From the NCBI RefSeq assembly GCF_009863025.1, contig NZ_WWIR01000645.1:25333-89332 (forward strand): a stretch of 64,000 bases of DNA. The letters run 5' to 3'. The notes under the pieces were generated by a model. The model was not told the origin of the DNA and searched no databases. It saw only the letters and a list, made by a program, of their open reading frames with translations. The position numbers were made by a program, and so were the translations under genes. Shown here one piece after another: positions 11,757 through 41,592 of the stretch. The stretch is from Streptomyces sp. SID4985. Its GTDB lineage: Bacteria > Actinomycetota > Actinomycetes > Streptomycetales > Streptomycetaceae. How positions within the stretch are numbered: the first letter of the stretch is position 1; each line of letters begins with the position of its first letter.

Positions 11757-14700
11757 TCAAAGGTGGGACAGCACACCCGCCAGCACCGCGCGCAGCCGTT
11801 CCGGAGCCACGTCCGGATCGATCGTCCAGCTGTGCGGTTCCGTCGCCAGGACCGGATGCCCCGGGTAGTGGGCGCGCAGCGTCAGTGACTCGGGCAGCTC
11901 CAGACGCGGCTGGTAGGGGTGCGTCAGCAGCAGGACGCGGGGCATGCCCGCCGTGGGATGGATGAGCCGCCCCGCCGCCGCCGAGGCCAGCGCCGTCGCG
12001 CGTGCCGGGTCGGGCGGGGTGGGCGGCTGCGGCTCCCAGAGCCGCACCAGGTCCGCCTGCCGCATCAGCGGCAACGGACCGGACCGCCCGTCGAGACGCA
12101 CCAGCTCCAGTGCCCGTCCCGCACGCAGCAGCGCCTCCGCCAGCAGATGCGCGCAGACCCGCAGACAGCTGCCGACCCGGCCGTGCGCCGCCGCCCCGGT
12201 GTCCAGGACGAGCACGGCGTTGCGCACGGCGACCGGAGCGGTGGCGAGGCGGGTCCGGTACAGCAGCGCGTCGTCGACCCGGAGCGCCTCGCGCACGTCC
12301 TCGGGCAGCGCCAGCTGACTGGGTACGAGACGGTCGGGGGGCCCGTGCCGCACCAGTTCGGCGGGGGCGCCCGCGGCCGTGGGACCGGTCAGGTCGTCGC
12401 CGATCGCGTTCGGAAGGCGCAGGGTGGTGAGGGGCGGCCTGCGCCGGGTCCGTGCGTCGCCGTCGTACTGCCCGCGCAGGAACCGCCGTACGATGCCGGG
12501 GTCCTGGCGGATCGCGTCGGGCCCGAGCATGCGCAGCGTGGGCAGCACCTCGGCGCGCACCCGCTCCAGCGACGCGGCGAACACCTCGGGTGACAGCGGT
12601 GCCGGAGAGGGCTCCTCGGTTCCGCCCCGCAGTCCTCGCTCGACGGCGGCCCGTAGATCGGCGGTCGGCACACCGGGCGGCGGGGCGAAGCGCGGGTCCG
12701 CCGGGAAACAGGACGCCACCACCGCCGCCAGCGCCGGATGGGCCGCCAACGGCCAGGCGAGAGAACGCAGTTCGGCCGCCACCCGGCCCCGGTGCGCCAG
12801 TTCGGCCCCTGGTGGGGGAGTGGTCCGCAGCAGCCGCGTCACGGAGACCAGCGTGGACAGCGGCACCGCCGCCTCCGCGGCCGCCGCGGCTCCGGCCAGC
12901 TCGGTCAGCGCGGCGAGGGGCAGCGGCAGCGGCGCGTCCGGAGCCGAGGGGGTGGCGCCCGTCCGCAGGTCCCACAGGAGTGTGGTGCCGCCGCCGTACG
13001 TGGTCGCGATCCGGTCCCCGGCGGGGGACCACGCCACGGACCACACATGGCCGACCGGAACACCGGTCGGCTCCAGGACCAGCACACGCTCCCCGCGTAC
13101 GACGTCCCAGACCTCCACCGCCCTGGTGTCCTGGCCGGGGCCCGGCGCGGCCAGCATGGTGCTGTCCGGCGACCAGGCCAGCGCGGGAGCCCAGCCGCGA
13201 CCGCCCGGACGGCCCAGCTCCCGGTGGACCTGCCAGGTCGCGGTGTCCCACACGACGGTCGGCCCCTGCCCCGCGACCGGAGTCGCCGCGAGGAGCCCGC
13301 CGTCGGGCGACCAGGCGACCCGTGCCACGAAGGTGTCCGAGGGCAGCGCGAGCCGGGGGCTGGTGCGCCGGAAGCCGGGCATGCGCCACAGCAGCACGCC
13401 GCCCTGCGTACCGGCCGCGACCAGACCGCCGTCCGGCGACCAGGCCGGGCGACCGGTCCCGCGCGCCACCGGGCGGCTTCGCGGACGGGCTTCCGGCTGC
13501 CGCAGGTCGTACAGGTACAAGTGAGTCGGTACGTCACCCGGTTCGGGCACCAGCAGCTCACGGGTGCCGAACGGGGACCACACGGGAGCCTGGCCACCCG
13601 GGAGCGAGGCGAGGAGAGCCCCGGTCGAGCGGTCGAGCACGGTCAGCGCGGCGCCGCCCGACCTGGTGGCGACCACGACAGGGCCGTCCGCGCCGGGGGC
13701 GACGGCGAGATCGTGGGCTCCGTCCCGCCCGGTCGGCACGGCGGAGGCCCACACCGCGCCCTCCTCGCCCGGAGTGCGCAGACCGATCAGCCCGGGGCGC
13801 AGTTCGGCCACGTGACGGTCGTCGTCGCCGGTCCAGGCGAACGCGGGTGCGGCCAGGGCCGGGCCCGCGTCGTGCAGCAGCCGGGGCGGCGACGCCGCGA
13901 GGGCCCGGGTGCGCGGCGCCGGTACGCTGCGCCCGATCGAGCGGCACATGGCCGCGGTCCAGCGGCGCAGCCCCGCGGCGGAACGGCGGCGGGGCGCGGG
14001 CGCGGTGGCGTCCGGCAGCTCCCACAGGGCCAGGACATCTCCGGCCCTGTCCGTGTCCCGCGCGAGCGGAACACGCACCAGCACCCGGCCGTACGCGGAC
14101 ATGCTCACGTCGTGCGGCTCGTGGACGTCGGCCGGGATCCGCGCCACCGGCTCCAGCGCCCGGTCGTACACCGTCACCGGGGCACCCCGCTCGGCACACA
14201 CGAGGAACTGTCCGGTCCGGCTGAACGCCAACGCCAGCACCTCGCCCGCGACCAGGGGCGACGTGGCGGTCACCGTGCCGGAGTCGCGGGTCAGCAGATG
14301 CACGCCGTCGGCGTCCGCACAGGCCAGCAGGGACCGGTCCGGCGACCAGGCGACCGCCGTGATGCCGGGGCGCCCCCCGGCGGGGGAGAAGTCCAGCCGC
14401 TGCGCGCGGACGTTCCACAACTGGAGCGAGCTGTGCGTCGCCAGGCACAACTGGCGCCCCAGCGGATCCCACGCCAGATCCGCCACCGGATCGGCGGTGC
14501 GCAGCAGCCTGTCCTCGCCGGAGCCGCGGTGATGCACCGTCACGCCTCCGCCGGAACGGGGGAACGCCACCCACAGCCCGTCCGGCGAGACGGCGGCCGC
14601 CCGCGCGCCCCGAGCCGTGGCGAGGCCCTCCGGCGGCGTACGGAGGGCACCGGTGTCCGCGTCGTGGACGTCCAGGCGGCCGTCCCCCAGGACGAGGAAC

Positions 14701-15032
14701 TCGCCGCCGTCCAGGCCCCAGACGATCCGGGCGGGCGGCCCGGACGGCGTTGCGGCTCCCCGGTCGCCGAACGGGGTCGTGGTCTCCCGGCCGCCGGACG
14801 GCGTTCCCGCCTCCCGCTCGCCGGACGGCGTCCCCGCATCCCGGTCGGCCGACCAGACACCGTGCCCCAGATCGTCGGTGCAGGACAGCCGCTGCCCGTC
14901 GACGGTCACGAGCAGGGTGCCGTCGGCGGAGAGCCCGGTGACGGCACGGGCGCCGTCGGCGCCGCCGCCCGGAAGATCCCGCAGATGCCGCGGCCCCCCG
15001 TGTACGACGGCCTCCCTCTCGGCAGCCGTCAC
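11757..15032 (-). CDS. WD40 beta-propeller protein with degenerate vWA-like C-terminus
   Basis: 1091 residues. The GTG at 15032 overlaps the stop of the preceding gene (GTGA), so a longer open frame upstream is rejected. Residues 100-740 hold at least ten WD40-like repeats of the form AWSPDG.LLA....GV.LWD, giving one or two propellers. A helical segment follows. From residue 938 AVLVLDTGAAAHG and the helix after it look like the first strand and MIDAS region of a von Willebrand A domain, but DxSxS is replaced by Asp944-Thr-Gly-Ala-Ala, so metal binding is probably lost. In MoxR ternary systems a vWA protein and a propeller accompany MoxR; here they appear fused. It is the last gene of the minus operon. 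Confidence 0.85.
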   Translation of the reverse strand: MTAAEREAVVHGGPRHLRDLPGGGADGARAVTGLSADGTLLVTVDGQRLSCTDDLGHGVWSADRDAGTPSGEREAGTPSGGRETTTPFGDRGAATPSGPPARIVWGLDGGEFLVLGDGRLDVHDADTGALRTPPEGLATARGARAAAVSPDGLWVAFPRSGGGVTVHHRGSGEDRLLRTADPVADLAWDPLGRQLCLATHSSLQLWNVRAQRLDFSPAGGRPGITAVAWSPDRSLLACADADGVHLLTRDSGTVTATSPLVAGEVLALAFSRTGQFLVCAERGAPVTVYDRALEPVARIPADVHEPHDVSMSAYGRVLVRVPLARDTDRAGDVLALWELPDATAPAPRRRSAAGLRRWTAAMCRSIGRSVPAPRTRALAASPPRLLHDAGPALAAPAFAWTGDDDRHVAELRPGLIGLRTPGEEGAVWASAVPTGRDGAHDLAVAPGADGPVVVATRSGGAALTVLDRSTGALLASLPGGQAPVWSPFGTRELLVPEPGDVPTHLYLYDLRQPEARPRSRPVARGTGRPAWSPDGGLVAAGTQGGVLLWRMPGFRRTSPRLALPSDTFVARVAWSPDGGLLAATPVAGQGPTVVWDTATWQVHRELGRPGGRGWAPALAWSPDSTMLAAPGPGQDTRAVEVWDVVRGERVLVLEPTGVPVGHVWSVAWSPAGDRIATTYGGGTTLLWDLRTGATPSAPDAPLPLPLAALTELAGAAAAAEAAVPLSTLVSVTRLLRTTPPPGAELAHRGRVAAELRSLAWPLAAHPALAAVVASCFPADPRFAPPPGVPTADLRAAVERGLRGGTEEPSPAPLSPEVFAASLERVRAEVLPTLRMLGPDAIRQDPGIVRRFLRGQYDGDARTRRRPPLTTLRLPNAIGDDLTGPTAAGAPAELVRHGPPDRLVPSQLALPEDVREALRVDDALLYRTRLATAPVAVRNAVLVLDTGAAAHGRVGSCLRVCAHLLAEALLRAGRALELVRLDGRSGPLPLMRQADLVRLWEPQPPTPPDPARATALASAAAGRLIHPTAGMPRVLLLTHPYQPRLELPESLTLRAHYPGHPVLATEPHSWTIDPDVAPERLRAVLAGVLSHL
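14742..14849. repeat. Four imperfect 27-bp tandem repeats inside the WD40 gene
   Basis: Four in-frame units start at 14742, 14769, 14796 and 14823. They encode nine-residue repeats of the form GTPSGxREA near the N-terminus of the WD40 protein (about residues 62-97). Composition suggests a flexible linker between the first and second blades. Copy number could vary between strains. Confidence 0.75.
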
Positions 15033-16771
15033 CGCTCCTCCATCAGACGCAGCGCGGCCTGCTCGTACAGCCTCCCGGCCTCCAGCGGATCGCCCGCGCT
15101 GCGGTAGGCCTCCGCCGCCTCGACGAGGTGGCCCTGCGCGTACAGACGCGCGGCCCGGGCCAGCGTCTCGGTGGGGTCGGTCACGTCCGGCAGTTCGAGC
15201 CCGCTGCCCTTGCTGTCCTCGCCGACGAGACCGTCCAGGGCGGACAAGAGCTGTCGGCCCGTCTCCGACACACCCGCCGGGGTGGAGGGGGCACGTACCG
15301 ACGCCCACAAAGTCCAGACCGGGACGAGCCCGTCCAGGTCGAAGCGGTGCACGGCCCCCGGCACACAGGCGACCGCCGTACTCGGGGTCACCCCGAGGGA
15401 ACGCACTCGCGCCCCCGGCGGCAGAGCGGGGACGAGGTCATGGCCGGAGCGCACGTAACAACTGCCGGGCCCCACCCGGCGCAGGGGAGTGCCGAAGGGG
15501 AGCGACGCGGCCAGGTCCGCCGGGTCCAGGAGGAGATGACACCCGGCCCCCGGAACGAGGAACGCCGACTCCGCCAGAGGACGCCCCCGCAGATACCGGC
15601 GCACCGCGCCCAGGTCGTCGTCCGTGAGCAGCACCGCGTCCACCCGGGTGTCCGCCACGGCGCTCGGCCGGACCTCGACCCGTGTCTCGGGCGCCGGTGG
15701 CAGGCCCGTCGCCCCGGCACCCGGTGACGGGGGACGACACCGGAGGTCCGAGCCCGGCGGCTGGATCACCAGCGGTGCGGGGCTGCCGAGGACCGACAGG
15801 CGCGCGGCGGGCTGCTCGGAGCTTCCGCTCAGCAGCCAGAACTCGTCCTCCGCCAGCCCGGGTTGGAGCAGCTCCTCGTCGACCGGCAGGCGCAGACGTA
15901 CGTCGATCAGGAGCTGTGGGCAGTGGGCGGCCGGTCGGCACACCGCCGTTCGCGGAAGCGAGACGACGGCGTGGACGAGGGAGTCGGGAACCATGCGCGC
16001 GGCATCCGCCGCGTCGGGCTCGTACGGTCCGCCCAGGATCAGCAACAGCCTTTCACGCGGCGGCTCCTGGCCCGGCGGGAACAGACCGCAGACTCCGACC
16101 GGGACCACGGCCGTCTCGACGACCGCCGCCATCGTGTGACGCGCCACCGCGGGAAGCAGCTCCGGGGCGGTGAGGACGTACAGCAGATGGTGACCGGGCT
16201 CCGGGCCGTGAACGGCGGGAAAGGCGGTGGCCAGTTCGACCGGAGTGACCTCGGGCCAGGTGAGCACCTCGTCCAGGTGGGCAGGTCCGGTGGTCCCCTT
16301 GGGGCCGGTCAGGGAGCCGTCGGCGAGCACGTGCCACGCCCGTCCGCCGTGGAGGGCCACCAGGTCCGTACCCGTCGCCGTGCCCGCGCCGCTCAGCAGC
16401 CAGTAGCCGCCGGAACCGGGCTGCCGTCGGCACGTCCAGGTGTGCGCGCCGACGCCGTGGAAGGTGCCGAGCGCGGCGAGCGTCTGCCGTGCGGAGTGGA
16501 AGACGCCCGCGCTCCGCCAGAGCGGGGGGTCGGCGCTGTCCGGTGGGGCGGTGACCGGTTGTGCCTCGTCGGGGGGACTCGCGTGATCCGCCGTCCGCTC
16601 CCCGGGCTCCCGGGCCGGGCGCACGAGGAAGGGAACCCCCCGGGCGTCGTCGGTTTCCGGGTCCGCCGCGGGCCGGATCGTGAACGGCCCGGTGGCGAAC
16701 GGCGGAGGATGCGGCGTCGAGCGCGGGGAGCGGCCGAAGAGCTGTCGCAGCCGCCGGAGGGAGGAGGGCAC
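15029..16771 (-). CDS. Large unknown protein with C-terminal TPR-like repeats (ternary-system component)
   Basis: 580 residues from the GTG at 16771, four bases after the TPR gene stop. I do not recognise the main domain. The N-terminal 85 residues are Pro-, Arg- and Asp-rich and probably disordered. The middle is beta-rich with repeated Trp/Gly motifs (THTWTCRR, WHVLADGSLTG) and may be one of the uncharacterised domains that accompany MoxR-vWA-propeller systems. The last 60 residues form helical hairpins with TPR spacing (ARLYAQGHLVEAAEAYRSAG, then EAGRLYEQAALRL). It overlaps the WD40 gene by GTGA, so the two are probably made in equal amounts. Confidence 0.7.
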   Translation of the reverse strand: MPSSLRRLRQLFGRSPRSTPHPPPFATGPFTIRPAADPETDDARGVPFLVRPAREPGERTADHASPPDEAQPVTAPPDSADPPLWRSAGVFHSARQTLAALGTFHGVGAHTWTCRRQPGSGGYWLLSGAGTATGTDLVALHGGRAWHVLADGSLTGPKGTTGPAHLDEVLTWPEVTPVELATAFPAVHGPEPGHHLLYVLTAPELLPAVARHTMAAVVETAVVPVGVCGLFPPGQEPPRERLLLILGGPYEPDAADAARMVPDSLVHAVVSLPRTAVCRPAAHCPQLLIDVRLRLPVDEELLQPGLAEDEFWLLSGSSEQPAARLSVLGSPAPLVIQPPGSDLRCRPPSPGAGATGLPPAPETRVEVRPSAVADTRVDAVLLTDDDLGAVRRYLRGRPLAESAFLVPGAGCHLLLDPADLAASLPFGTPLRRVGPGSCYVRSGHDLVPALPPGARVRSLGVTPSTAVACVPGAVHRFDLDGLVPVWTLWASVRAPSTPAGVSETGRQLLSALDGLVGEDSKGSGLELPDVTDPTETLARAARLYAQGHLVEAAEAYRSAGDPLEAGRLYEQAALRLMEER

Positions 16772-16774
16772 CGC

Positions 16775-17467
16775 TCACCCCGCGCGGACGTTCAGGGGCG
16801 GCAGCCACGCGTTGCCGCCCAGGTGCAGGCCCGCCCATTGGTGCCACCGTTCGAGAATCTCGTCCGGACCCTCGTCCTCACCGTGCGGTCGGTGCGCCGC
16901 GCCGAACAACCGTGCCCCCCAGTCGAACCGTTCCAGTCGGTCGGCCGCCTCGACGCCCCACTCCAGCAGCGCGATCCGCTCCCCGCGCGAGGACAGCGCC
17001 CCCAGGTGCACTTCGAGGCGGCCGAGCGCGGCGAGGAGCGGTTCCGGCGGACCGCCGCCGATACGGGCCCGCAACGCGCGGGCGAGTTCGAGACGCAGTG
17101 GGGAGGAACCGCCCCCGGCGGTCTGCCCGGAGAGCCGGTCCGCCGCCGCGAGCAGGGAGTCGGTCCGGTGCGTGTGCCCCGCGAGCAACAGCTCCCAGGC
17201 GGCCTCCAACGGCCGGTTCCGGTCCAGCCAGCACTGCGCGGCGCGTTCGGGACGGCCCAGCAGGCGGTAACAGTGCGCGGCCTGGGCCGCGTGCCCGGCC
17301 CTGCGGTACGTCTCCGCCGCGTGCTCCAGGTCGCCCGCGCGCTCGTACGCCTCCGCCGCCGTCCACCGCCAGCCGACGGCGTCGTAGCAGCGGGCGGCGT
17401 CCGTGTGCGCGCCCGCCTCGGCGTAGGACCGGGCGGCCTTGACGAGCAGGTGGGCATGTCGGCTCAC
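16775..17467 (-). CDS. TPR-like alpha-solenoid protein
   Basis: 230 residues. The GTG at 17467 overlaps the stop of the 92-residue gene (GTGA). Residues 1-100 contain at least four short helical hairpins with A-x-x-Y/C and G-x-x-x-x-A spacing (AARSYAEAGAHTDAARCYDA, TAAEAYERAGDLEHAAETYR, AQAAHCYRLLGRPERAAQCW), close to TPR/SEL1-like repeats. The second half is helical without a recognised domain. No signal peptide or membrane segment is seen. It is likely a cytoplasmic scaffold between the ATPases and the propeller protein (inference). Confidence 0.75.
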   Translation of the reverse strand: MSRHAHLLVKAARSYAEAGAHTDAARCYDAVGWRWTAAEAYERAGDLEHAAETYRRAGHAAQAAHCYRLLGRPERAAQCWLDRNRPLEAAWELLLAGHTHRTDSLLAAADRLSGQTAGGGSSPLRLELARALRARIGGGPPEPLLAALGRLEVHLGALSSRGERIALLEWGVEAADRLERFDWGARLFGAAHRPHGEDEGPDEILERWHQWAGLHLGGNAWLPPLNVRAG

Positions 17468-17742
17468 CAGGTCTCACGCTCGCCGTCGTCCGCCGTGTCC
17501 GCCGCGAGGTCGTCGGCGGTCTCCGCGTGCACCACGCGCGGAGCGGGCCAACCGGTCGGCGGGGCCTGCCGGATCTCCTCCACTTCGGGCCGGCGGGCCG
17601 CCACCGCTCCGAGCTCGGCGCTGATCCGGTCGTGTTCCGCGTCGTGATCGGCGCCGACGGAGGAGCCCCCGAGGTCGTCGACACGGAACAGCTCGACCTC
17701 GCCGGTCTCGGCGTTGAAACGGAACCGCACGCGCACCCGCAT
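17464..17742 (-). CDS. 92-residue acidic protein of unknown function
   Basis: The ATG at 17742 lies four bases after the preceding stop; a longer frame upstream overlaps the coiled-coil gene and is rejected. The first 20 residues (VRVRFRFNAETGEVELFRVD) look like a beta-hairpin. The remainder is acidic, with a Pro/Trp stretch PPTGWPAP and many Ala, Asp and Glu. It overlaps the TPR gene start by GTGA. I do not recognise the family; the N-terminal hairpin pattern is reminiscent of small DUF2997-type partners of AAA systems, but that is a guess. Confidence 0.65.
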   Translation of the reverse strand: MRVRVRFRFNAETGEVELFRVDDLGGSSVGADHDAEHDRISAELGAVAARRPEVEEIRQAPPTGWPAPRVVHAETADDLAADTADDGERETW

Positions 17743-17746
17743 CGGG

Positions 17747-18541
17747 TCAGGCCTCCATCTCGAACTCGATGTCGATGACATGGTCCGATTCCTCGACCTG
17801 GATGCCGGTGGCGCCGTGCTCGCGGGCGTACGCCAGAATCGCCTGACGGTAGGAAGCGGCCAGCACCTCGTTGACGGCACCGAGCCCGTCGCTCGCGAGC
17901 TGCTGCAGCCGCTCACGGTTCCGCGACTCCAACTCGCCCTGGAGACGCTCCCGTTCGCTCGCCAGGCGGGCCTCCGCGTCCGCCCCCGCGGCCGCGCGCA
18001 ACCGCTCGTCGGCCGCCGCCGCTGCCGCGTCGGAGGCGTCCCGGGCCTGTCGGCGCACCTCTTCCAACAGCCTCATGGCCTGCGACTCGGCGGCGTGTTC
18101 GGCCTGTCGCCGCGCGTCCGCCTCGGCGCTCGCGTAGGTGACGCCGCCGTAGTCGTCGTCGTAGTAACGGCCTTCGCCCGCGCCCTGCGCCGTGTCGGAC
18201 ACGGTCCCGCTCAGTACGTCGCTCGCGCGACCCTCCGCACGGGCCTCCTCCTCCAGGCGGGCGGTCACGAGGAGTTCGCCCGTCGACGGCCGGTACGTCA
18301 CCCGTCCGTCGGGCAGGTCGAGGACGAAGACGCCGTCGGCCTCCTGCCAGCCGGGAGCGGAGGCGAGCGCGTGCTCGAACGCCTCGCGGGTGCGGGCGCC
18401 CAGGGTGCCGCCGAAGGGGTAGGCGACCTCAACTTCGCTGACCACGGTGTCGGTTCGGCTGACCCGGCGCTCGACCTCCACCTGCCAGGCCTCCACCACC
18501 TCCCGGGTCGCCGTGATGTTGACCCTGCGTGGGTTGCACAT
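17747..18541 (-). CDS. Coiled-coil protein of the MoxR operon
   Basis: 264 residues from the ATG at 18541 (MCNPRRV); a GTG four codons upstream at 18553 is an alternative. The N-terminal MCNPRRVNITATREVVEAW motif recurs, to my recollection, in unnamed actinobacterial proteins. A mid-section with Gly/Tyr/Asp residues (GEGRYYDDDYGG) leads into a long Ala/Glu/Arg-rich coiled coil at about residues 135-225. The C-terminus ends in a short strand-like acidic segment HVIDIEFEMEA. It probably links to MoxR, whose gene ends 62 bp upstream, the largest gap in the operon. Confidence 0.7.
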   Translation of the reverse strand: MCNPRRVNITATREVVEAWQVEVERRVSRTDTVVSEVEVAYPFGGTLGARTREAFEHALASAPGWQEADGVFVLDLPDGRVTYRPSTGELLVTARLEEEARAEGRASDVLSGTVSDTAQGAGEGRYYDDDYGGVTYASAEADARRQAEHAAESQAMRLLEEVRRQARDASDAAAAAADERLRAAAGADAEARLASERERLQGELESRNRERLQQLASDGLGAVNEVLAASYRQAILAYAREHGATGIQVEESDHVIDIEFEMEA

Positions 18542-18603
18542 ACGCCCCGTCACCCCCAGTACGCCACCGGCTCCCCCGGAGCGGTGTGGAATCGGTCGGT
18601 CTC

Positions 18604-27771: not shown

Positions 27772-27977
27772 GCCTCCCCCTCGGCACCACGGCTCGTTCC
27801 GGGGGACTCTACCCATGGCGTGCGTCTGATCAATCCGCTTTTGCCGTAAGAAGGTTGAGCGTACGTCAGTTAGCACGCGACTGGGTGAAAGCGCGGACAA
27901 CACAGGCATTATCTGTGATAGAGAGTCCCTTCCGGGACGTGCGCGGTGCGCCGACCCGTGGAAAGGAACGCCGGGCT
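27772..27977. promoter_or_regulatory. Divergent promoter region between the two island operons
   Basis: The 206 bp between the chosen starts must contain both promoters. No convincing -35/-10 pair stands out on either strand. CACAG-7 nt-CTGTG (27901-27917) is the only inverted repeat noticed. If the CHAT protein starts at 27909, the region shrinks to 68 bp. Lower GC (AT-rich stretch 27835-27920) fits a promoter. Confidence 0.4.
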
Positions 27978-30242: not shown

Positions 30243-32065
30243 CCCTTGCTCTCCCGCCGTCCGTGCGGGCGCGCCCCCGCGCGGACCTGAGCGTCTACCG
30301 CTGGTCCGAGCACTCCCTCACCGGGCGCAACGGAGTCGGCCCCGTGGCGACGTCGCTGAACCGCGACGACCTGCACCTGTGGGACGGCCGGGTCGCCCCG
30401 TTCGTGTGGGCGGTCACCGGGCCGGGCAACGCGGGCGCGAGCGAACCGGGCTCCGGCTTCCTCTATCTGCGGTTCGGTGCCGAGGCGGCGATGATCCGCA
30501 AACGGCCGGTCCGCGACGCGCGCGGCCGCGCCGGATCGACCCTCACCCACGTCCTGACCGCCCCCGCCGACTGGCTGGACCTCGGCCTGGCCCTCGCGCT
30601 GTGCCGCAGCGAATGGGACGAGTGGCTGCCCGCGGGCGCGTTGCAGGACGGCGGGCGGAGCGAGCTGCCGACCGTCCCGCTGGACAAGCTCAGACAACAT
30701 CTGACCGGCGCTGTCGCGGAGTTGGCCAGTGCCGCCGACACCGTACCCGCCCGTCTGCTCGCCCCGGTCGCGCAGGCGGTCATGGCGACCCCGAAGTCAC
30801 CCGTGACCGTCATCGGGTCGCCCGTTCCCCCCGTGGAAGTGGTGCGGGTGCTGCACGACGTGCTCGCCCCGCTCGTCGCGGGGGAGTGGACCTTCGCCAC
30901 CCGGGAGGAGTCCGACCGGGGCACCGGACTGCCGCGTTTCGTCTTCCTGGAGGAACCGGAACAGGGCTCCCTCTACGGCCAGAGCGACCGCGTCACCGTC
31001 GTGATGAACACGGAGCCGGACGACCCCGAGGCCCTCGCCCGCGCCGAGCAGCTCATCGAGTACCACCGGCGTCGCGGCCCGGACGCGGTGCGCAGACTGC
31101 TGCCGGACGGCCCGCTGGCCACGGCCGAGGACGTACGCGAGTGGCAGCGCCACCACTACATCGCGCCCGGTGTCATCGCCGACGTGACGAGCCTCCTGCA
31201 CGACGCCGTGGCCCGGGACATCGATCCGCAGGCCGCGGAATTCCTCGCCCGCCCGGCGAGCCGTCCGACCATCGAACTGCATCTGCGCCGTGCCTCGTTG
31301 CCCGAGCTGGAGACGCTCGTGGAGGCGTGGGCGCCGCATCGCGGGGACCTGGACGCGTACGGTCACGTACGGACGGCCCTGCACACCGAGGCGCTCCGGC
31401 GCGCGCTCCGGGTGAGCGACGGCTGGAATCCCGAGGCGCGCAGCGAACTCCTGGCCCGGCTGAAGCAGGCGCGGCCGGACACCGGCCTGGTCGTCGAGGC
31501 CGTCCGGGGTGCGCTGAGCACGGTCGGCGGCCGGGGCGAGAGCCTCGATGTGCTGCACGTCCTGATGGTGGCGCGCGCGGTGGGCATCGCGGGACGGGAG
31601 TTCGACGAGGTCCGCAACGACGCCGTCGAGCGGCTGGCCACACACCAGTTGATCACGGCCGTCGACCGCATCAGCGCCCTCGACCCGCTCCTCGGCCGCG
31701 AACTCCTCGCCCACTGCGCACGCCGCAAGGACCGGCGGGACGACCGGATACAGACCTGCCGGACACTGCGTCAGCGGGTGTACCTCGGCCGCGCGGTACG
31801 GCTCATGGCCCTCGGTGGATTCCGGGACGCCGTCGATCTCTACTGCCTCCTCGTCACGTGCGCGGTGGGCAGCGCGCCGGGGCGGACCGGCGTGGTCACG
31901 GTGCTCGCGGATGCCGGACAACGCCCCGACGCGGCCCTGCTCATGGCGCTGTCGCGCCTGGCACGCGGCCGCATGGCCCGGTACGAGGTGCTGACCGCCA
32001 TCGAAAGCGCCTACTTCCGCGACCAGTTGAGCAGCAGAAAGTCCGGGGGAGAGCACCAGGAATGA
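30239..32065 (+). CDS. GTPase-associated protein 1 (GAP1)-like
   Basis: 608 residues from the GTG at 30239, overlapping the GTPase stop. The N-terminus VYRWSEHSLTGRNGVGPVATSL resembles the N-terminal domain of GAP1-type proteins that sit next to such GTPases in conflict operons; I rely on memory for this family. The middle region (FATREESDRGTGLPRFVFLEE) and a helical C-terminal half with many Arg/Ala/Leu repeats follow. No signal peptide or membrane segment is seen. It probably binds or regulates the GTPase (inference). Confidence 0.75.
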   Translation: MTLALPPSVRARPRADLSVYRWSEHSLTGRNGVGPVATSLNRDDLHLWDGRVAPFVWAVTGPGNAGASEPGSGFLYLRFGAEAAMIRKRPVRDARGRAGSTLTHVLTAPADWLDLGLALALCRSEWDEWLPAGALQDGGRSELPTVPLDKLRQHLTGAVAELASAADTVPARLLAPVAQAVMATPKSPVTVIGSPVPPVEVVRVLHDVLAPLVAGEWTFATREESDRGTGLPRFVFLEEPEQGSLYGQSDRVTVVMNTEPDDPEALARAEQLIEYHRRRGPDAVRRLLPDGPLATAEDVREWQRHHYIAPGVIADVTSLLHDAVARDIDPQAAEFLARPASRPTIELHLRRASLPELETLVEAWAPHRGDLDAYGHVRTALHTEALRRALRVSDGWNPEARSELLARLKQARPDTGLVVEAVRGALSTVGGRGESLDVLHVLMVARAVGIAGREFDEVRNDAVERLATHQLITAVDRISALDPLLGRELLAHCARRKDRRDDRIQTCRTLRQRVYLGRAVRLMALGGFRDAVDLYCLLVTCAVGSAPGRTGVVTVLADAGQRPDAALLMALSRLARGRMARYEVLTAIESAYFRDQLSSRKSGGEHQE

Positions 32066-32075
32066 GAGGCGCCAC

Positions 32076-33350
32076 GTGACCCCAGAGGAGACGACCCCCA
32101 CGGCCCCCGCGGCCTCCACGGCCGCCGTGCTGCGTGCGGCGGCCCGGCTCGACGAGCTCGCCGCGCGCGGCCCCAGTGCGCAGGGATCGCAGCTCCTGCA
32201 CCGGATAGCCGCGGAGGCCAAGGCCGGCGGTTCCTCCCTGGCCGGGATCGACCTCGTACGGGCCTATCCGCCCGAGCTTCTGATGCCGGATCAGCCCGCG
32301 GGCCGGGGTGCGGTGGAAGCCGTACTCGGCGGTGTCCGGGACGCGGCCGTGTTCGTGCCCATCGCGGTCACCTGGTTCTCGCTGTGGAAGGCCTTCGAGG
32401 ACTTCGAGGACAGCCCGAAGGGCACCAACTTCCTCCGGCTGTGGATCTCCGGCCTGGGCGGCACGGCCGTCCTCGCGGTCATCGCCCTGATCGTCGTGGT
32501 CGTCGTCCTCACCGCCGTGCTGCAGCGGCGGGAATGGACGGCCGAGCGGCACGGGTCGCGGGAGTGGGAGCGCCAGGAGGTCGCGGGACAACTCATGCTG
32601 ATCAACCTTGAGTTGTCGACCTCGACCGCGGCACAGGCCGCCACCCTTCCGGCGGCCAAGCTGGTGCGCGCGGCCAGGGACATCTCGGCGGCCGCCGTGA
32701 CCCTCGCCGCGACGATGAAAGGAAGCACCGAGCGCCTGGCGAAGATCTTCGAGCCCGGTCCGGAGAGCTCCTTCACGACCGCGCTCGACCGGTGGACGGC
32801 CTCCGCCGGAGAGCTGCGGGAGATGGGGCGCTCGCTCACTGTCCCCCACGACCTCATCCGCCGGTTCACCGCTCTGCGCGCCGAGCTGGCCGCCGAGGAG
32901 CAGGCCGCGCGCGCCGCGCTGAAGGAGCTCCTCACGGAGCTGGGCGAGGCCAGCCAGTCCTCGCGGGACGCCGATGTCGCCCACACCCGGGTGGCTGCCT
33001 CGGTGGTCGAGGGCACCCGTCAAGTGGCTCTGGGAATGGAGCTGTTCGTCGATCACAGCGAGCGGCTCTACGAGTACATGGACGTTCTGGCGCGTGTGCT
33101 CGCCGTGCTCGACGGGGGCCGTATGCCGACCCCGTCCGTGGCCTCGGGCATGACCAACGCGACGACGGCCAACGGCGCGGGCGACGGACCGATGGGCCGC
33201 CAGGTGCCGCGACAGGACACGGGGCAGGGACACGACGGCGGAACGCCGCCCCGCACACCCCCCGCCGGGCCCGGGAGCACCGACAGTCGCAAGGACACGG
33301 GCGACGACGGGGGCGTGGCCGACGGCTGGTATCCGGAGCAGGACGGATGA
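32076..33350 (+). CDS. Two-TM protein with long helical tail, MotA/ZorA-like in plan
   Basis: 424 residues from the GTG at 32076 after GAGAGG. Hydrophobic segments lie at about residues 93-110 (DAAVFVPIAVTWFSLW) and 128-150 (ISGLGGTAVLAVIALIVVVV). A helical cytoplasmic tail of some 200 residues follows, rich in Ala, Glu and Arg, then a disordered C-terminus. The plan (membrane part plus long helical tail) and the overlapping downstream gene recall ZorA/MotA-type stator subunits, but only two membrane segments are evident, against four in MotA. It overlaps the next gene by ATGA. Confidence 0.7.
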   Translation: MTPEETTPTAPAASTAAVLRAAARLDELAARGPSAQGSQLLHRIAAEAKAGGSSLAGIDLVRAYPPELLMPDQPAGRGAVEAVLGGVRDAAVFVPIAVTWFSLWKAFEDFEDSPKGTNFLRLWISGLGGTAVLAVIALIVVVVVLTAVLQRREWTAERHGSREWERQEVAGQLMLINLELSTSTAAQAATLPAAKLVRAARDISAAAVTLAATMKGSTERLAKIFEPGPESSFTTALDRWTASAGELREMGRSLTVPHDLIRRFTALRAELAAEEQAARAALKELLTELGEASQSSRDADVAHTRVAASVVEGTRQVALGMELFVDHSERLYEYMDVLARVLAVLDGGRMPTPSVASGMTNATTANGAGDGPMGRQVPRQDTGQGHDGGTPPRTPPAGPGSTDSRKDTGDDGGVADGWYPEQDG

Positions 33351-33925
33351 GCCGTGACCGAGCGGGGCGGGGGAAGGGCATCGCGCCGAGGTACCTGGCG
33401 GGCTGGCTCTTCGCCGATCTCTTCCTGGCCCTGTTCGTCATCGCCCTGGCGCTCGGACTCGCGTCGTCCGGCGGCCCGAGGCCGAGTGAGGCCGTACCGC
33501 CTGCTCCGGGCACCGGGGAGTCCGAGCCGCCCAAGAACGCCGGGCCGGGCGGCATCGATCCGCACTACCGCACCATAGAAGTCACCCTGGGGCGCGGTGC
33601 GACCGGCCGTGCGCCGGGGCCCTCCGCGCTGAGGAAGGACGACGTCCGCAAGGTGGTCGCCGCCGTGGACAAGGAGATGAACAAGTCCGGCCGGGGACGG
33701 CGGATCGGCATGGTGATCACGTTCGGCAGCGCGCCCAAGGCAAGCCTCGAAAACGGTGAGGCGCTCGCCCAGGACATCAACGAAGCGCTGAAGAACGGGC
33801 GACGGGGCGCGTTCTGCGGGAAGAACGTGGGCCTGCGCAACTTCTGGTCCGGCGGCGCGGACGACCATGCCACGATCGAGATCTACTACATCAACCGCTG
33901 CGATGCCCCGAAGGCCGGCTCATGA
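33347..33925 (+). CDS. Single-TM protein with MotB/TolR/ZorB-like membrane segment
   Basis: 192 residues from the ATG at 33347 (ATGA overlap). One membrane segment at about residues 18-40 reads WLFADLFLALFVIALALGL. An Asp at its start followed by Leu/Phe matches the ion-carrying Asp of MotB, TolR, ExbD and ZorB. The C-terminal domain (110-190) has an OmpA-like order (IGMVITFGSAPKASLENGEALAQDINEAL) but lacks the classic peptidoglycan-binding residues I would look for. It may be a stator partner of the preceding membrane protein. It overlaps the CHAT gene by ATGA. Confidence 0.72.
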   Translation: MSRDRAGRGKGIAPRYLAGWLFADLFLALFVIALALGLASSGGPRPSEAVPPAPGTGESEPPKNAGPGGIDPHYRTIEVTLGRGATGRAPGPSALRKDDVRKVVAAVDKEMNKSGRGRRIGMVITFGSAPKASLENGEALAQDINEALKNGRRGAFCGKNVGLRNFWSGGADDHATIEIYYINRCDAPKAGS

Positions 33926-36276
33926 GCTGGCGCGACGCCCTCTACGCCGAGCTGAGGCGGGTGATCACCCCCGTCGAGGCCACGATCCTGCTGCGCGCCG
34001 AGCTGGCCGAGGACACCCGCTGGCTTCCCGACGCCGAACTCACGGCCGACGTCTTCTGGCACGAGTTGAGGCGCCAGGTCGGACAGCGGCCCTCGGACGA
34101 CGCCGAACGCGCACTGGTCGGCTGCGCCGCGCGGGAGTATCCGGGCAACGCCGTCTTCCGTGAGACGCTCAGCCGGATCAGGGGCCCGGGCGGGACGAGG
34201 GACGCGGGGCAGCCCTCCGGCTCCGTCGTCGCGCTGGTCCTGGTGAGCGCGAGCCATCACACCGAGTTCCTGAACATCGTCCGCGATATCCACGACTCCG
34301 GCGCCGACTTCATCTACGTCCGCAAGGCGGAGGGGGCGTGGGACGGCGAGGCCGCCGTCGAGATCGCGCGAGCGCTCGCGGACCGGGAGGTCGCATCGCT
34401 GCGCGGGCTGCTCGTCGCGGCGGGCGCCTCCGAACGGGTGGTGGTCCGCCAGGAGACGTACCGGCATCGCCCCTACCTCATCGGTGAGTTCACCGTCCAG
34501 GGGCCCGACGGGCAGCCGTTCCAGGTCGAGGGGGCGCCCTCCAGCCTGCGGCTGCGCGACCTGGTCAGGCCGGTGCTCGACTCGTACGGAACCGCCTCAC
34601 CGTGGGGCTCGCCGGGCCGCCCGGCGGCCGCGCTCTCCTTCTGGAGCGGCGACCGCAGGCTCATCATGAGCGACCGTCTCCACGACGCCGGCGTGGGCGA
34701 GGGCGACGAACTGCACCTCAGGACCGTCGACCGTTACTACGTGGACGAGCCCGCACGCGAGCGGCCGACGGCCGTCGGGATACCCGAGCAGCCCGTCGCG
34801 GGCTGGGAGTTGCGTGCCTCGGTCGCGGGGACGGCGCGGCTCGAACAGACCGTGGTGATCACGGTGTACCTGTGGCATCCCGGGACCTCCGCCGCCGGTT
34901 TCGGCGGTCGCGGCGCCCCGGCACGAGGGGATGCCACGGCCGGGCACCCGTTCGACGTGTCGACGGGCAGCCTGCGCATCAGGCTCTCGGCCATCCTGCC
35001 CAACGGCGTGAGCGCGCCGGACGGCGCGGACCGGGAGATCGTCGTACGGCCCGGCCAGGAGCCCTCGCCGGTCGGACTGCCGGTCCGCGTGCACGGACTC
35101 CACACCTACTCCGTGGTCCTCAACGCCTGGGCGGGCGGCACCTACTTGGGCAGACTGCGCCTGCCGGTGCGGGGCACGCTCGAAGCGACGCAGACATGGA
35201 CCGTCGGCGACGCGATCCGCGTCGACACGCTCGCGCCGGAGCGCGGCCATGTGACCCTTCAGGTCTTCCCGATCGGACGCGGGCGCCTCCAGTTCCAGCT
35301 GCTGTGCGATGCCAACGGAGCCCCGGTCGAGGTCGAACTCGACGACTACGTGCGGTACTTCGAGAAACTGCGTACGCGGTTGCAGAAGATCGCCTCCATG
35401 AGGTCCCCGAGCGAACTGGTCCTGGCCCGCAAGGAGATCCAGGACTACGGGATCGACATGTGGCGCAAGCTCGTCCCGCAGACCGTCAAGGAGCAGTTCC
35501 TGGAGATCAGGGACTCCGTGGACAGCTTCAGTCTCGCGGCGACCAAGGACGCCCAGCGAATACCGTGGGAACTTCTCTACCCGATCACCGGCAGCCCCGC
35601 CGACGACCGGGGTTTCCTCGTCGACTCGATCGCCTTCTCCAGGAATCCGTTCCAGCCGCATCCGAAGGACCGTCAGATCTCCTTGCGCAGGCCCGCGTTC
35701 GTACTCGGCAGCGAAGGTCCGCAGGAGGAACTGGCTCACGCTCGTGCGGAGTTGGAGCACCTGCGGCGCAAGATGGGCGGTGAACCCCGGTTGTTCGGGC
35801 GGATCGGGCAGGTCGTCGAATGGGTGGAGGGCGGCGAGGGCGGCCTGCTGCACCTCGCGTGCCACAACGGCGTGGACGAGGCCGGTCTGTCCGCACTCCC
35901 GATGCGGGACGGGATGTTCCGGCCCGTACACCTGGGCAGGTCGGAAGAGGCACGCACGCTGGCCGACCGGGCCGCCCTGGTGTTCCTCAACGCCTGCGGA
36001 AGCGCCTGCCTCGGCGACGGGCTCGTCGAGCTGGCCGGCTGGGCCAACAGCTTCATGGCCGCGGGGGCCCGCAACTTCATCGGTACGCAATGGCCGGTCG
36101 CTGGGGACACCGCCCGCCGCTTCGCCGAAGTCTTCTACGAGGCACTGGTGGGCGCACGCCAGCCGGTCGGCCACGCACTCCACACCGCGAGAACCACCCT
36201 GCGGGAGGGCACGGACGACGCGTCCAGACTCGCCTACGCCCTCTACGGCGAACCCTGGGGCTGCGCGGCCGAATGA
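33922..36276 (+). CDS. EAD-like / ubiquitin-like / CHAT protease
   Basis: 784 residues from the ATG at 33922 (ATGA overlap). Residues 1-92 are an EAD-like helical domain (LYAELRRVITPVEATILLR..FWHELRR..YPGN); about 105-200 an alpha/beta segment; about 190-275 a ubiquitin-like beta-grasp ending LHDAGVGEGDELHL. All three are homologous to the start of the E2 fusion at 25071. A beta-rich section (280-430) and a helical bridge follow. The C-terminal CHAT domain (about 595-784) has catalytic His648 in HLACHNG and Cys692 in VFLNACGSA, with the GTQWPV motif typical of CHAT. It is the probable proteolytic effector of the plus operon. The shared module suggests it is recruited or modified by the E2 pathway (inference). 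Confidence 0.9.
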   Translation: MSWRDALYAELRRVITPVEATILLRAELAEDTRWLPDAELTADVFWHELRRQVGQRPSDDAERALVGCAAREYPGNAVFRETLSRIRGPGGTRDAGQPSGSVVALVLVSASHHTEFLNIVRDIHDSGADFIYVRKAEGAWDGEAAVEIARALADREVASLRGLLVAAGASERVVVRQETYRHRPYLIGEFTVQGPDGQPFQVEGAPSSLRLRDLVRPVLDSYGTASPWGSPGRPAAALSFWSGDRRLIMSDRLHDAGVGEGDELHLRTVDRYYVDEPARERPTAVGIPEQPVAGWELRASVAGTARLEQTVVITVYLWHPGTSAAGFGGRGAPARGDATAGHPFDVSTGSLRIRLSAILPNGVSAPDGADREIVVRPGQEPSPVGLPVRVHGLHTYSVVLNAWAGGTYLGRLRLPVRGTLEATQTWTVGDAIRVDTLAPERGHVTLQVFPIGRGRLQFQLLCDANGAPVEVELDDYVRYFEKLRTRLQKIASMRSPSELVLARKEIQDYGIDMWRKLVPQTVKEQFLEIRDSVDSFSLAATKDAQRIPWELLYPITGSPADDRGFLVDSIAFSRNPFQPHPKDRQISLRRPAFVLGSEGPQEELAHARAELEHLRRKMGGEPRLFGRIGQVVEWVEGGEGGLLHLACHNGVDEAGLSALPMRDGMFRPVHLGRSEEARTLADRAALVFLNACGSACLGDGLVELAGWANSFMAAGARNFIGTQWPVAGDTARRFAEVFYEALVGARQPVGHALHTARTTLREGTDDASRLAYALYGEPWGCAAE

Positions 36277-36350
36277 CCGCCCTGGCCCCCGGACCCAACC
36301 CCGGACCGAATCCCGGACAGCGGATCCAGCTCAACAAGGAGGAACACAGG

Positions 36351-36539
36351 ATGGGCACAGAGGAACAGCCGGAAGTCCACGACATCCGCTTCGGCGACGA
36401 CGGCCGCGTCGAGGAGTACGACGGCGCGGACTGGCAGCCCTACGGACGCGAGCCCGACGAGGGGGAGGAGCCGCTCTTCCGCGACGGCGAAGGCCCGTCC
36501 GGCGGAACCGAGGAGCAGCGGGACGGGACCGGTCGGTGA
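36351..36539 (+). CDS. 62-residue acidic protein of unknown function
   Basis: The ATG at 36351 has AAGGAGG at 36336-36342, a strong RBS that decides the start. An in-frame ATG at 36273, overlapping the CHAT stop, would add 26 residues. The product is strongly acidic, with EVHDIRFGDDGRVEEYDG near the start forming a likely beta-hairpin and a disordered Gly/Glu tail. It ends in a GTGA overlap with the membrane protein gene. No family recognised. Confidence 0.7.
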   Translation: MGTEEQPEVHDIRFGDDGRVEEYDGADWQPYGREPDEGEEPLFRDGEGPSGGTEEQRDGTGR

Positions 36540-37192
36540 GCGACGCCTCCGCGTCCCCCGCCGAATCCGGGCAGCCGGTGCTGAGTTCGGCGCAGACGGC
36601 GGTGGCCGACATGAGGGCCACCGCCCGCTGGACCATCGGGGCCACGGCCGCCGTGGGCGGCGTGCTCCTCGCCGGGGTCCCGCTGGCCGCGATCGGGAAA
36701 GTGCACGGTGCCCGTGACATCGCCCTCGCGGCCGGCGGTCTGCTGCTCGCCCTGGCGGGAGTGGCCTGGGCGATCTGGCAGACCGGCGAGGCGCTGTCCC
36801 CGAGGTTCGTCACGCTCGCCTCTCTGGACGAGCCCGGACTCGACGACCTGCGCGCCAGGATCGCCGCACAGCCGCGCGCCTTCCTCGGCCCCTTCGGCAC
36901 CAGCGCCGCGGAACTCGCGGCCGCCTGTACGCGGCACAGCACCGTCGCCGCGCGCCTGGAGGACCTGCTGGCGAGGGAGGAGGACCCACGCCGCCGCGCG
37001 GAGGCGACCCATCGCCTGGCACAGGCCCGCGCCAACTTCGCGGAGGCGGCGGCACGGCGCCGGAGCCTCCTGGAGCTGATCCACGCCTGGGAGGTGCGGA
37101 ACGTGCTGCGGCGGGCGCGGCTGCACACCCTGATCGCCGCGGTCGTCGTGGTGGCGGGGGCGGTTCTGTTCATCACGGCGACCCGGAAGTGA
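36536..37192 (+). CDS. Three-TM membrane protein with cytoplasmic helical domain
   Basis: 218 residues from the GTG at 36536 (GTGA overlap). Two membrane segments at about residues 33-52 (IGATAAVGGVLLAGVPLAAI) and 60-80, and a third at the C-terminus (IAAVVVVAGAVLFITA), bracket a helical region rich in Ala, Arg and Glu (about 90-190). The plan resembles small membrane partners of death-domain-like systems, but no specific family is recognised. It is the last gene of the plus operon and closes the island. Confidence 0.78.
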   Translation: MSDASASPAESGQPVLSSAQTAVADMRATARWTIGATAAVGGVLLAGVPLAAIGKVHGARDIALAAGGLLLALAGVAWAIWQTGEALSPRFVTLASLDEPGLDDLRARIAAQPRAFLGPFGTSAAELAAACTRHSTVAARLEDLLAREEDPRRRAEATHRLAQARANFAEAAARRRSLLELIHAWEVRNVLRRARLHTLIAAVVVVAGAVLFITATRK

Positions 37193-37273: not shown

Positions 37274-37338
37274 CGTTGGCGAAGGGGCCCGGCAGGGAAG
37301 GGCGCCCGGGCGGCCACAGCGAGACAAGGATGTTGCGC

Positions 37339-38256: not shown

Positions 38257-38257
38257 C

Positions 38258-40212: not shown

Positions 40213-40257
40213 AACCCCCGTCCCGAGAATCCCCCTGAGCCGCTCCAAGGATTCGCC

Positions 40258-41562: not shown

Positions 41563-41592
41563 CCGGCGCCCACCGGCGTCATGGGAGTGACC

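What the first reader, a model, noticed from the sequence alone, without database searches (positions are those of the whole stretch)
11757..37192. Composite 25 kb island: bacterial ubiquitin-like cascade, AAA/MoxR/beta-propeller machinery and a GTPase-stator-CHAT arm
Seen directly: two divergent, tightly overlapped operons. Minus arm: EAD-CHAT, RING-like, E1, EAD-Ubl-E2, JAB, unknown, AAA, MoxR, coiled coil, 92 aa, TPR, unknown, WD40-vWA-like. Plus arm: pseudokinase-GTPase, GAP1-like, two membrane proteins, EAD-Ubl-CHAT, 62 aa, three-TM protein. Known: each family occurs in predicted prokaryotic conflict systems (ubiquitin-like operons; FtsH/MoxR/vWA/propeller ternary systems; EAD-CHAT and GAP1/GTPase systems). 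Inference: here they form one two-armed defence or programmed-death system with two caspase-like effectors. I know of no experimental description of this combination.
Basis: partly seen in the sequence, partly recalled or inferred. Interest (0 to 1): 0.95.

Follow-up and report, generated by a model that had tools for sequence, protein, structure and literature searches.

The report
Two-switch bacterial ubiquitin-like death island
A soil bacterium carries a gene island in which a predicted ubiquitin-like protein-tagging pathway and a predicted membrane-linked molecular switch, described in print as separate systems, have been inherited together in a group of related species, and together they are predicted to trigger self-destruction of infected cells; here the part that carries the tag has also been fused to a second likely protein-cutting enzyme.

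Summary
The minus arm is not new: it matches the "complex" FtsH/MoxR/vWA ternary system with a ubiquitin-like (Ubl) tri-ligase cascade that Kaur et al. predicted in 2020 (PMC7159879), and Pfam already names most of its families.

What is new is the plus arm. A pseudokinase-DO-GTPase, a GAP1-like protein and two membrane proteins accompany the minus arm throughout one actinobacterial clade: 20 loci with both arms linked and a 21st split by a contig break. Trees of the two arms match (patristic r = 0.987; 0 of 5000 permutations reach it). The same paper says MoxR-vWA and DO-GTPase-GAP1 cores "are not exchanged". The nearest relatives of the arm's GTPase sit in tubulin-type gene clusters (8 of 8 checked).

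In my samples only this genome has a chimera: the EAD1-Ubl head of the E2 joined to a second CHAT protease, without the Ala-Gly junction where the Ubl is probably cut.

Most likely a dual-switch abortive-defence or programmed-death system. Function is untested; the "stator" and vWA labels are unproven.

The parts
10428..11480 (+).
   Evidence: PF04055 9.7e-20; TIGR04337 219.8 bits against a cut-off of 220; homologues in 13 of the 40 related loci and contigs searched (in many of the others the stretch held stops before this end)
11477..11710 (+). 77 aa peptide, start overlapping the radical SAM stop; ends in EQMMCG
   Evidence: PF20007 fvmRadSAM-pep 4.3e-31; C-terminal QM[LM]CG in the 10 peptides recovered at 13 loci looked at
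11757..15032 (-). Beta-propeller protein with divergent vWA-like C-terminus
   Evidence: WD40 1.1e-15; no vWA hit; LVLDTGAAA at 12186-12212
15029..16771 (-). fvmX7 protein
   Evidence: PF20005 2.2e-47
16775..17467 (-). TPR-like protein
   Evidence: TPR hits, all below cut-off; conserved in the three related loci
17464..17742 (-). fvmX3 protein, 92 aa
   Evidence: PF19999 3.7e-25
17747..18541 (-). fvmX2 coiled-coil protein
   Evidence: PF20000 2.6e-87
18604..19767 (-). MoxR AAA+ ATPase
   Evidence: PF20030 bpMoxR 2e-70; Walker A at 19564-19590
19764..21569 (-). FtsH/Cdc48-like AAA ATPase
   Evidence: PF00004 2e-41; Walker A at 20376-20402
21566..22468 (-). fvmX1 protein
   Evidence: PF19998 5.4e-64
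22413..23450 (-). JAB/JAMM peptidase with fvmJAB_N
   Evidence: PF20011 7.9e-38; E200, H267, H269, S280, D283 in 38 of 38 rows
23440..25071 (-). EAD1 - YukD-like N - Ubl - E2 fusion; Ala-Gly junction (ESTAG) 24058-24072, catalytic Cys motif 23725-23742
   Evidence: PF20006 over cut-off; PF08817, PF00179, PF19955 below; E2 His, Asn and Cys in 36 of 36 rows; junction
25068..26129 (-). E1 (ThiF family)
   Evidence: PF00899 7.4e-41
26129..26845 (-). RING-like E3 candidate
   Evidence: no Pfam hit; 13 conserved Cys/His
26842..27732 (-). EAD1-CHAT protease effector; His motif 27205-27225, Cys motif 27076-27093
   Evidence: PF19955, PF12770; H170 and C216 in 29 of 29 rows aligned there, 33 rows in all
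27978..30242 (+). Pseudokinase - zinc ribbon - DO-GTPase fusion (separate genes in G687 and G711); P-loop 29346-29369
30239..32065 (+). GAP1-like protein (divergent GAP1-N2)
   Evidence: profile-profile score 28.4 over 194 columns, 0 of 248 shuffles; models built on it hit a gene in 7 of 8 tubulin-type loci
32076..33350 (+). Membrane coiled-coil protein
   Evidence: one strong TM segment at residues 131-149; helical model of low confidence
33347..33925 (+). Single-TM protein with invariant LAGWLFADL and an alpha/beta domain
33922..36276 (+). Chimera: EAD1 - YukD-like N - Ubl head (about residues 1-275) on a CHAT protease; His motif 35851-35871, Cys motif 35989-36006; no Ala-Gly junction after the Ubl
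36351..36539 (+). 62 aa acidic protein, unknown
   Evidence: no Pfam hit; no relative in the loci searched
36536..37192 (+). Three-TM protein, unknown; possible membrane effector
   Evidence: three TM segments; no relative in the loci searched

Best explanation
In one actinobacterial clade a predicted Ubl-conjugation conflict system (minus arm) is inherited together with a GTPase-GAP1-like membrane cassette (plus arm), and the pair is predicted to act as one dual-switch abortive-defence system. Proposed order of events, each step inferred. The membrane arm (pseudokinase-GTPase, GAP1-like protein, two membrane proteins) would sense or threshold an envelope or infection signal by GTP turnover. 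This would license the ATP-driven soluble machine (MoxR, FtsH-like AAA, propeller protein, fvmX proteins). The JAB would cut the EAD1-Ubl head off the E2 after the conserved Ala-Gly junction. E1, E2 and the RING-like protein would conjugate EAD1-Ubl to targets. EAD1-EAD1 contact would bring the EAD1-CHAT protease to the tagged targets, and its cleavage would stop or kill the cell. In this genome the 33922-36276 chimera would carry the EAD1-Ubl head permanently on a second CHAT protease, so that protease would join the same assemblies without conjugation. Shown by sequence: linkage, co-inheritance, conserved catalytic motifs, the shared head, the missing Ala-Gly in the chimera.
For: Pfam families match the published system (paper section read). 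Catalytic motifs are conserved: E2 His/Asn and Cys 36/36, JAB E/HxH/S/D 38/38, CHAT His and Cys 29/29. Linkage: PF20006 in 4 of 392 genus genomes and the close form of p3 (633-714 bits, next best 73) in the same 4. Plus arm (at least kinase, GTPase and GAP1-like genes) in view in 18 of 36 FtsH-core loci, divergent in 17 and co-oriented in L021; L019's left half on another contig also has it. Minus-arm tree, 34 rows: the 20 two-armed rows plus L019 are split from the 13 one-armed rows with support 100/99.9; plus- and minus-arm distances r = 0.987, 0 of 5000 permutations, n = 20. Close-form GTPase (458-526 bits) only in the same 4 of 392 genomes. The three strongest hydrophobic segments are in plus-arm proteins. 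The Ubl-E2 junction ends in AG in 32 of 36 rows (TAG in 24); the chimera lacks it. Chimera head matches the window's own E2 head at 32% over 330 columns (E 1e-42), its C-terminal part a Streptomyces CHAT protein at 34% over 427.
Against: No experiment on any member was found in the searches made (open-licence library only). 17 of 36 FtsH-core loci have no plus arm in view and work, if at all, without it. Shared inheritance shows one unit, not a direction of signalling, and the permutation test does not remove shared species history. No phage link was looked for; the one plasmid search (JAB) found a single match covering 37%. The ten flank genes scanned are metabolic, a DEAD helicase and the radical SAM, not known defence genes. 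The GAP1 match is weak by the program's own probability (2% full length, 8% N-terminal part). Four of 36 junctions read AA or VA, so cutting there is a prediction. Four minus-arm proteins also have hydrophobic stretches above my threshold (1.63-1.87), which I take as enzyme cores.
Confidence: 0.45

Rival explanations
1. Two independent conflict systems that merely sit side by side and share a promoter region, as conflict operons often cluster.
For: Minus arm without plus arm in 17 of 36 FtsH-core loci. Relatives of the plus-arm cassette exist alone: GTPases of 228-280 bits in 63 of 392 genus genomes, 8 of 8 checked beside a tubulin-like gene; in two Acrocarpospora genomes an unlinked cassette coexists with a one-armed system.
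Against: In the 392-genome sample the close form of p3 and of the GTPase occurred only with the minus arm (only the 4 or 5 best candidates per genome were scored). One clade, 21 of 21 rows with the plus arm, matched trees. Gene order re-arranged to one strand in L021 without loss of linkage. The chimera in the plus operon has a head like that of the minus arm's E2.
Confidence: 0.15
2. A developmental or envelope quality-control machine rather than defence: the GTPase-membrane arm reports envelope state, and Ubl tagging with CHAT cleavage removes or remodels proteins during differentiation of filamentous actinobacteria.
For: Kaur et al. tie these systems to multicellular habit (abstract); by record titles the two-armed loci are all from actinomycetes; flanks are mostly metabolic genes; only one partial plasmid match for the JAB.
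Against: Patchy: 4 of 392 genomes of the genus and 1 of 396 of the phylum sample, the window's own, unlike a developmental gene set; EAD1-effector architecture is that of predicted conflict systems.
Confidence: 0.25
3. Signalling runs the other way: Ubl conjugation tags plus-arm membrane proteins and so switches the GTPase arm, which is the effector (membrane disruption).
For: The strongest TM segments are in plus-arm proteins, including the three-TM protein found only here; GTPase systems of this kind often have membrane components in print (passages of PMC7159879).
Against: EAD1-CHAT-like genes are kept with the minus arm with or without the plus arm.
Confidence: 0.15

Closest known systems
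FtsH (fvm) MoxR-vWA ternary system, complex variant with Ubl tri-ligase (Kaur et al. 2020, PMC7159879; abstract, section 3 parts 7 and 8, and passages seen)
   Same: Propeller protein, MoxR, FtsH-like AAA, JAB, E1, RING-like, EAD1-Ubl-E2, EAD1-caspase-like effector, radical SAM and PF20007 peptide
   Different: The parts of the paper I read mention no GTPase arm for it and no joining of the EAD1-Ubl head to CHAT. Its supplementary gene lists could not be opened.
Tubulin-type DO-GTPase/GAP1-N2 system (same paper, passages)
   Same: Kinase, zinc-ribbon GTPase and GAP1-like genes in the same order; closest GTPases (8 of 8 loci checked carry the tubulin-like gene; kinase seen in 6, GAP1-like in 7)
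   Different: No tubulin-like gene and no FNIII protein in the plus arm; it has a pair of membrane proteins
GAP1-N2/HSP70 loci of the genus
   Same: Distant versions of the p3-p4 membrane pair (p3 hits up to 73 bits; p4 of L119 and L120 keeps LAGWLFADL)
   Different: HSP70 gene (Pfam in L120; seen by its first residues in L119; other three not checked) instead of the kinase-GTPase; no Ubl system seen
Bil / 6A and other bacterial Ubl operons (PADLOC E1-E2 and BilD models)
   Same: E1, E2, JAB chemistry (E1 hits an E1-E2 model at 68 bits, BilD at 24)
   Different: The Ubl is fused to the E2 behind an EAD1, and a RING-like protein, AAA machines and a CHAT effector are present (make-up of the Bil systems recalled)

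Membership tests
FtsH ternary system with Ubl tri-ligase | MoxR ATPase of the ternary type | tested here: met
   PF20030 2e-70
FtsH ternary system with Ubl tri-ligase | FtsH-type AAA protein, inactive first and active second AAA domain | tested here: inconclusive
   Active AAA found (PF00004 2e-41); Pfam shows no first domain
FtsH ternary system with Ubl tri-ligase | Beta-propeller fused to a (divergent) vWA | tested here: inconclusive
   WD40 1e-15, no vWA hit
FtsH ternary system with Ubl tri-ligase | EAD1-Ubl-E2, E1, JAB, EAD1-effector | tested here: met
   Pfam and conserved catalytic residues; EAD1, YukD and UQ_con are below their cut-offs in the window's E2 fusion
FtsH ternary system with Ubl tri-ligase | RING-type E3 | tested here: inconclusive
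   No Pfam hit; 13 conserved Cys/His
FtsH ternary system with Ubl tri-ligase | Radical SAM and associated peptide | tested here: met
   PF04055 9.7e-20, PF20007 4.3e-31
FtsH ternary system with Ubl tri-ligase | Metallopeptidase of the peptide-processing set | not tested
   No row for one in the Pfam scans of the island and ten flank genes; not searched for elsewhere
DO-GTPase/GAP1-N2 system | DO-GTPase with zinc ribbon | tested here: met
   Homologues in L029 and L041 above cut-off, L021 below; window protein itself 16.1 bits; invariant Cys and P-loop residues
DO-GTPase/GAP1-N2 system | GAP1 with GAP1-N2 domain downstream | tested here: inconclusive
   No Pfam hit; collinear profile match, 0 of 248 shuffles, low probability
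DO-GTPase/GAP1-N2 system | FNIII-repeat protein | tested here: not met
   No FNIII row for any of the seven plus-arm proteins at E up to 0.05, so the arm is filed as a derived cassette, not a member
Zorya (ZorAB stator) | ZorA and ZorB | tested here: inconclusive
   No PADLOC hit for the window's p3 and p4; one 15.7-bit ZorA hit in a coiled-coil part of L041 p3; p4 fold comparison not discriminating

The most novel reading that the evidence does not exclude
The two published bacterial threshold switches, MoxR-vWA and GTPase-GAP1, have been wired in series into one unit: the GTPase arm at the membrane is the obligate trigger of a ubiquitin-like tagging cascade, and in this genome evolution has made a protease that is born carrying the tag, with the tag's carrier swapped from the E2 to a second CHAT protease and its cleavage site removed, so that it enters tagged assemblies without any conjugation.
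Probability: 0.3. Interest if true: 0.82.

Novelty: new variant of a known kind. Interest (0 to 1): 0.6.

Why it matters
The 2020 classification treats MoxR-vWA and DO-GTPase-GAP1 as alternative switches whose core pairs are not exchanged (passage). A clade that keeps both in one locus suggests that they can be combined, and gives deletable arms with which to ask what each switch does. The chimera makes the untested idea that EAD1-Ubl recruits caspase-like effectors directly testable: in it, nature has covalently joined the two. The Ubl-E2 junction motif gives a predicted JAB cut site that can be checked in a tube.

Tried and rejected

GAP1 by Pfam: no GAP1 row in the window or in four homologues. 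Two profile comparisons are void because my script read some loci on the wrong strand (61) or past a frame error (63). One search stopped on failed shuffles; of the 250 shuffles, 2 failed and were dropped.

In some searches the single-sequence models (p5 parts, p6, p7) were mislabelled WIN, so the 'p5parts' column is void; one search replaces it. The support of 0.36 printed belongs to another node: it was read after midpoint rooting. Read on the unrooted trees, the same split has 1.0 in FastTree, 100 in the quick and 100/99.9 in the careful IQ-TREE run.

Limits of the surveys. The scan of 84,980 genomes used two peptide patterns of the JAB, so relatives without them are missed (86 stretches, 72 confirmed). 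Whole-genome searches scored only the best candidates of a first look (4 per genome, 5).

Paper searches: one search listed 4 papers; one search found 103 holding a term, 20 shown, most about animal facial coding; one search listed 2 and one search listed 1. Of the papers listed, only PMC7159879 was opened; PMC8195603 was seen as a listing. None of the listings describes this combination.

Chance neighbours rejected because. Mobile-element origin not shown: I searched both flank proteins in 31 genomes (own included), but they belong to large families and I did not pursue an empty site.

Full report
Place and gene content. The window is part of contig C625 of genome G000. Two genomes called 'same genus' (G687, G680) have contigs of exactly the lengths of Streptomyces monashensis and S. 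griseus records (66,427 and 275,758 bases), so the genus is very probably Streptomyces. Thirteen genes run leftwards from about 27732 to 11757 and seven run rightwards from about 27978 to 37192, many overlapping by a few bases.

Minus arm. Pfam carries a named model for most of it: fvmX1, fvmX2, fvmX3, fvmX7, fvmJAB_N, fvmYukDl_N and bpMoxR, with ThiF, AAA, EAD1 and CHAT. I take these names to come from the FtsH-vWA-MoxR ternary systems of Kaur et al. 2020 (origin of the names recalled; the paper text does not use 'fvm'). I read the FtsH part of that paper in full. Its complex variant has a beta-propeller-vWA protein, JAB, E1, RING, an EAD1-Ubl-E2 fusion and an EAD1-caspase-like effector. The paper also proposes that EAD1-Ubl recruits the effector to conjugated targets and that JAB frees it (passages). 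The minus arm is therefore a known, predicted system. The peptide ends in QM[LM]CG in all 10 copies recovered; at 3 of 13 radical SAM loci (L033, L035, L048) I recovered none next to the gene.

Activity of the minus arm. Alignments across the related loci keep the E2 His, Asn and Cys (36 of 36 rows), the JAB Glu, HxH, Ser and Asp (38 of 38), the CHAT His and Cys (29 of 29 rows aligned there, 33 in all) and 13 Cys/His of the RING-like protein (at least 31 of 32, or 34 of 34). The junction between Ubl and E2 ends in Ala-Gly in 32 of 36 rows, 24 of them TAG (the others are L033, L035, L048 with AA and L049 with VA). I take it as the likely JAB cut site; this is inference.

Plus arm. The GTPase half is a zinc-ribbon DO-GTPase: DO-GTPase2 scores 16.1 bits in the window and 17.7 in L021, below cut-off, but 29.5 and 39.8 in L029 and L041. 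None of 19 rows keeps all of the kinase Lys, HRD Asp and DFG Asp, so I call it a pseudokinase. It is fused to the GTPase in the window and in G680 but separate in G687 and G711. The next protein has no Pfam hit, but its N-terminal part aligns collinearly over 194 columns with GAP1-N2 proteins from 26 loci; the score of 28.4 was reached by 0 of 248 column shuffles (maximum 26.4). The profile program's own probability is low (2% full length, 8% for the N-terminal part). The two membrane proteins follow. p4 carries an invariant LAGWLFADL (11 of 11 rows).

Do the arms belong together? PF20006, which marks the E2 fusion, is in 4 of 392 genomes of the genus at E up to 0.001 (3 over the cut-off) and in 1 of 396 of a phylum sample, the window's own. 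All four carry both arms in divergent order. p3 at 633-714 bits is in the same four; 30 further genomes have only distant hits of 73 bits or less. The GTPase at 458-526 bits is again in the same four, 63 genomes have 228-280 bits and 27 have 63 bits or less. A scan of a collection of 84,980 species genomes with two JAB patterns gave 72 loci; 36 carry at least one FtsH-core gene. Of these, 18 show the plus arm (at least kinase, GTPase and GAP1-like; p3 in 16, p4 in 12, the rest cut by the ends held or not matched), 17 show none, and L019 breaks off at the RING gene. L019's genome has a contig with p3-p2-GTPase-kinase-CHAT, the missing half. Two of the 18 (L044, L047) are the same genomes as G687 and G680, so with the window and G711 there are 20 linked cases. 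Of the 17 without, several have short upstream sequence, so I searched 16 of the 17 whole genomes for p2 (L045 left out): none has a close copy; two Acrocarpospora genomes have 77-85 bits and one Frankia genome 19.6. In L021 (Rhizocola) the plus arm lies on the same strand just upstream of the minus arm.

Inheritance. A tree of five minus-arm proteins from 34 rows splits the 20 two-armed rows and L019 from the 13 one-armed rows with support 100/99.9 (IQ-TREE, careful; FastTree 1.0). Distances in plus- and minus-arm trees correlate at 0.987 over 20 rows; 0 of 5000 permutations reach it. Shared species history adds to this value, but the spread over Streptomyces, Pseudonocardiaceae, Micromonosporaceae and Streptosporangiaceae (names, families recalled) without a seen loss of the plus arm inside the clade points to one unit. 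Loss of the minus arm alone could be seen only in the 392 genomes of the genus, where none was found.

Where the plus arm came from. All 8 mid-scoring GTPase loci that I fetched, out of 63 genomes, lie near a tubulin-like gene; kinase seen in 6 of 8 and GAP1-like in 7 of 8. A like cassette stands in the two Acrocarpospora genomes beside a tubulin-like gene (Pfam Tubulin_2 in L180; same first residues in L182), on other contigs than their one-armed FtsH systems as far as the handles show. Distant p4 genes were in 5 of 5 fetched loci with distant p3 hits, p3 itself in 4 of 5 with my model, and GAP1-N2 proteins nearby in 3 of 5; HSP70 is confirmed in L120 only. So the arm looks assembled from parts of GTPase systems and then fixed beside the Ubl system. 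Kaur et al. write that MoxR-vWA and DO-GTPase-GAP1 core pairs are not exchanged (passage); this clade is an exception in the sense that one locus holds relatives of both.

The chimera. The protein at 33922-36276 starts with EAD1, YukD-like N and Ubl like the E2 fusion: 32% identity to the window's own E2 head over 330 columns, 36-38% to heads of L017-L020, while its C-terminal part matches a Streptomyces griseochromogenes CHAT protein at 34% over 427 columns. In a search of 5.8 billion proteins only itself and that CHAT protein scored, though only the 7993 candidates sharing most words were tested. In 17 of the other two-armed genomes (L044, L019 and G711 not searched) no listed frame joins an EAD-Ubl head to a CHAT. 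Its Ubl lacks the Ala-Gly junction (ELHLRTVDRYY stands there instead). Its CHAT His and Cys are present.

Reading. I read the island as one dual-switch system whose output is CHAT proteolysis at Ubl-tagged, EAD1-marked sites, probably ending growth of an infected or damaged cell. Linkage, co-inheritance, motifs and the chimera are shown; sensing, order of events, cut site and outcome are inferred. The three strongest hydrophobic segments lie in plus-arm proteins (3.38, 2.57, 2.47; weaker ones of 1.63-1.87 in four minus-arm proteins), which is why I place the trigger there.

Novelty. Minus arm: known prediction. GTPase cassette: derived from a known kind. New: their stable union and the tag-bearing protease. 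Paper searches in an open-licence library found no description; the 2020 supplement could not be opened. Hence 'new variant of a known kind', interest 0.6.

Noticed in passing
L026:7659-11071 (Streptosporangium violaceochromogenes): Three-gene set EAD1-CHAT, EAD1-Ubl (with TAG and a short tail, no E2) and JAB; no E1, E2, AAA or MoxR match within the locus: a stripped or decayed version that hints at the Ubl's natural end.
   Followed up: partly
L042:4981-9960 (Dactylosporangium aurantiacum): E1 and EAD-Ubl-E2 genes duplicated in tandem inside a two-armed system.
   Followed up: no
L024:3486-9441 (Acidobacteriia MAG): Eight matches to the EAD-Ubl module between E1 and E2, so the head seems to be multiplied or put on several proteins.
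   Followed up: no
   Followed up: no
window:11477-11710 and nine related loci: The radical SAM-associated peptide ends in a conserved Met-Leu/Met-Cys-Gly; what the enzyme does to it is unknown.
   Followed up: partly
L054-L075 (mostly Chloroflexi/Anaerolineae): E1, E2, JAB gene sets without FtsH-core matches; in four rows (L063, L064, L065, L072) ITAG precedes the E2, like the junction here.
   Followed up: no
L190-L197: Tubulin-like, kinase, GTPase, GAP1-like clusters in the genus (63 of 392 genomes by GTPase score, 8 looked at).
   Followed up: partly
window:6559-8686 and 37324-42375: Flanks are mostly sugar-metabolism genes (PfkB, LacI, 3-hydroxyisobutyrate dehydrogenase-like, sugar kinase, aldolase, MFS), not known defence genes.
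   Followed up: yes
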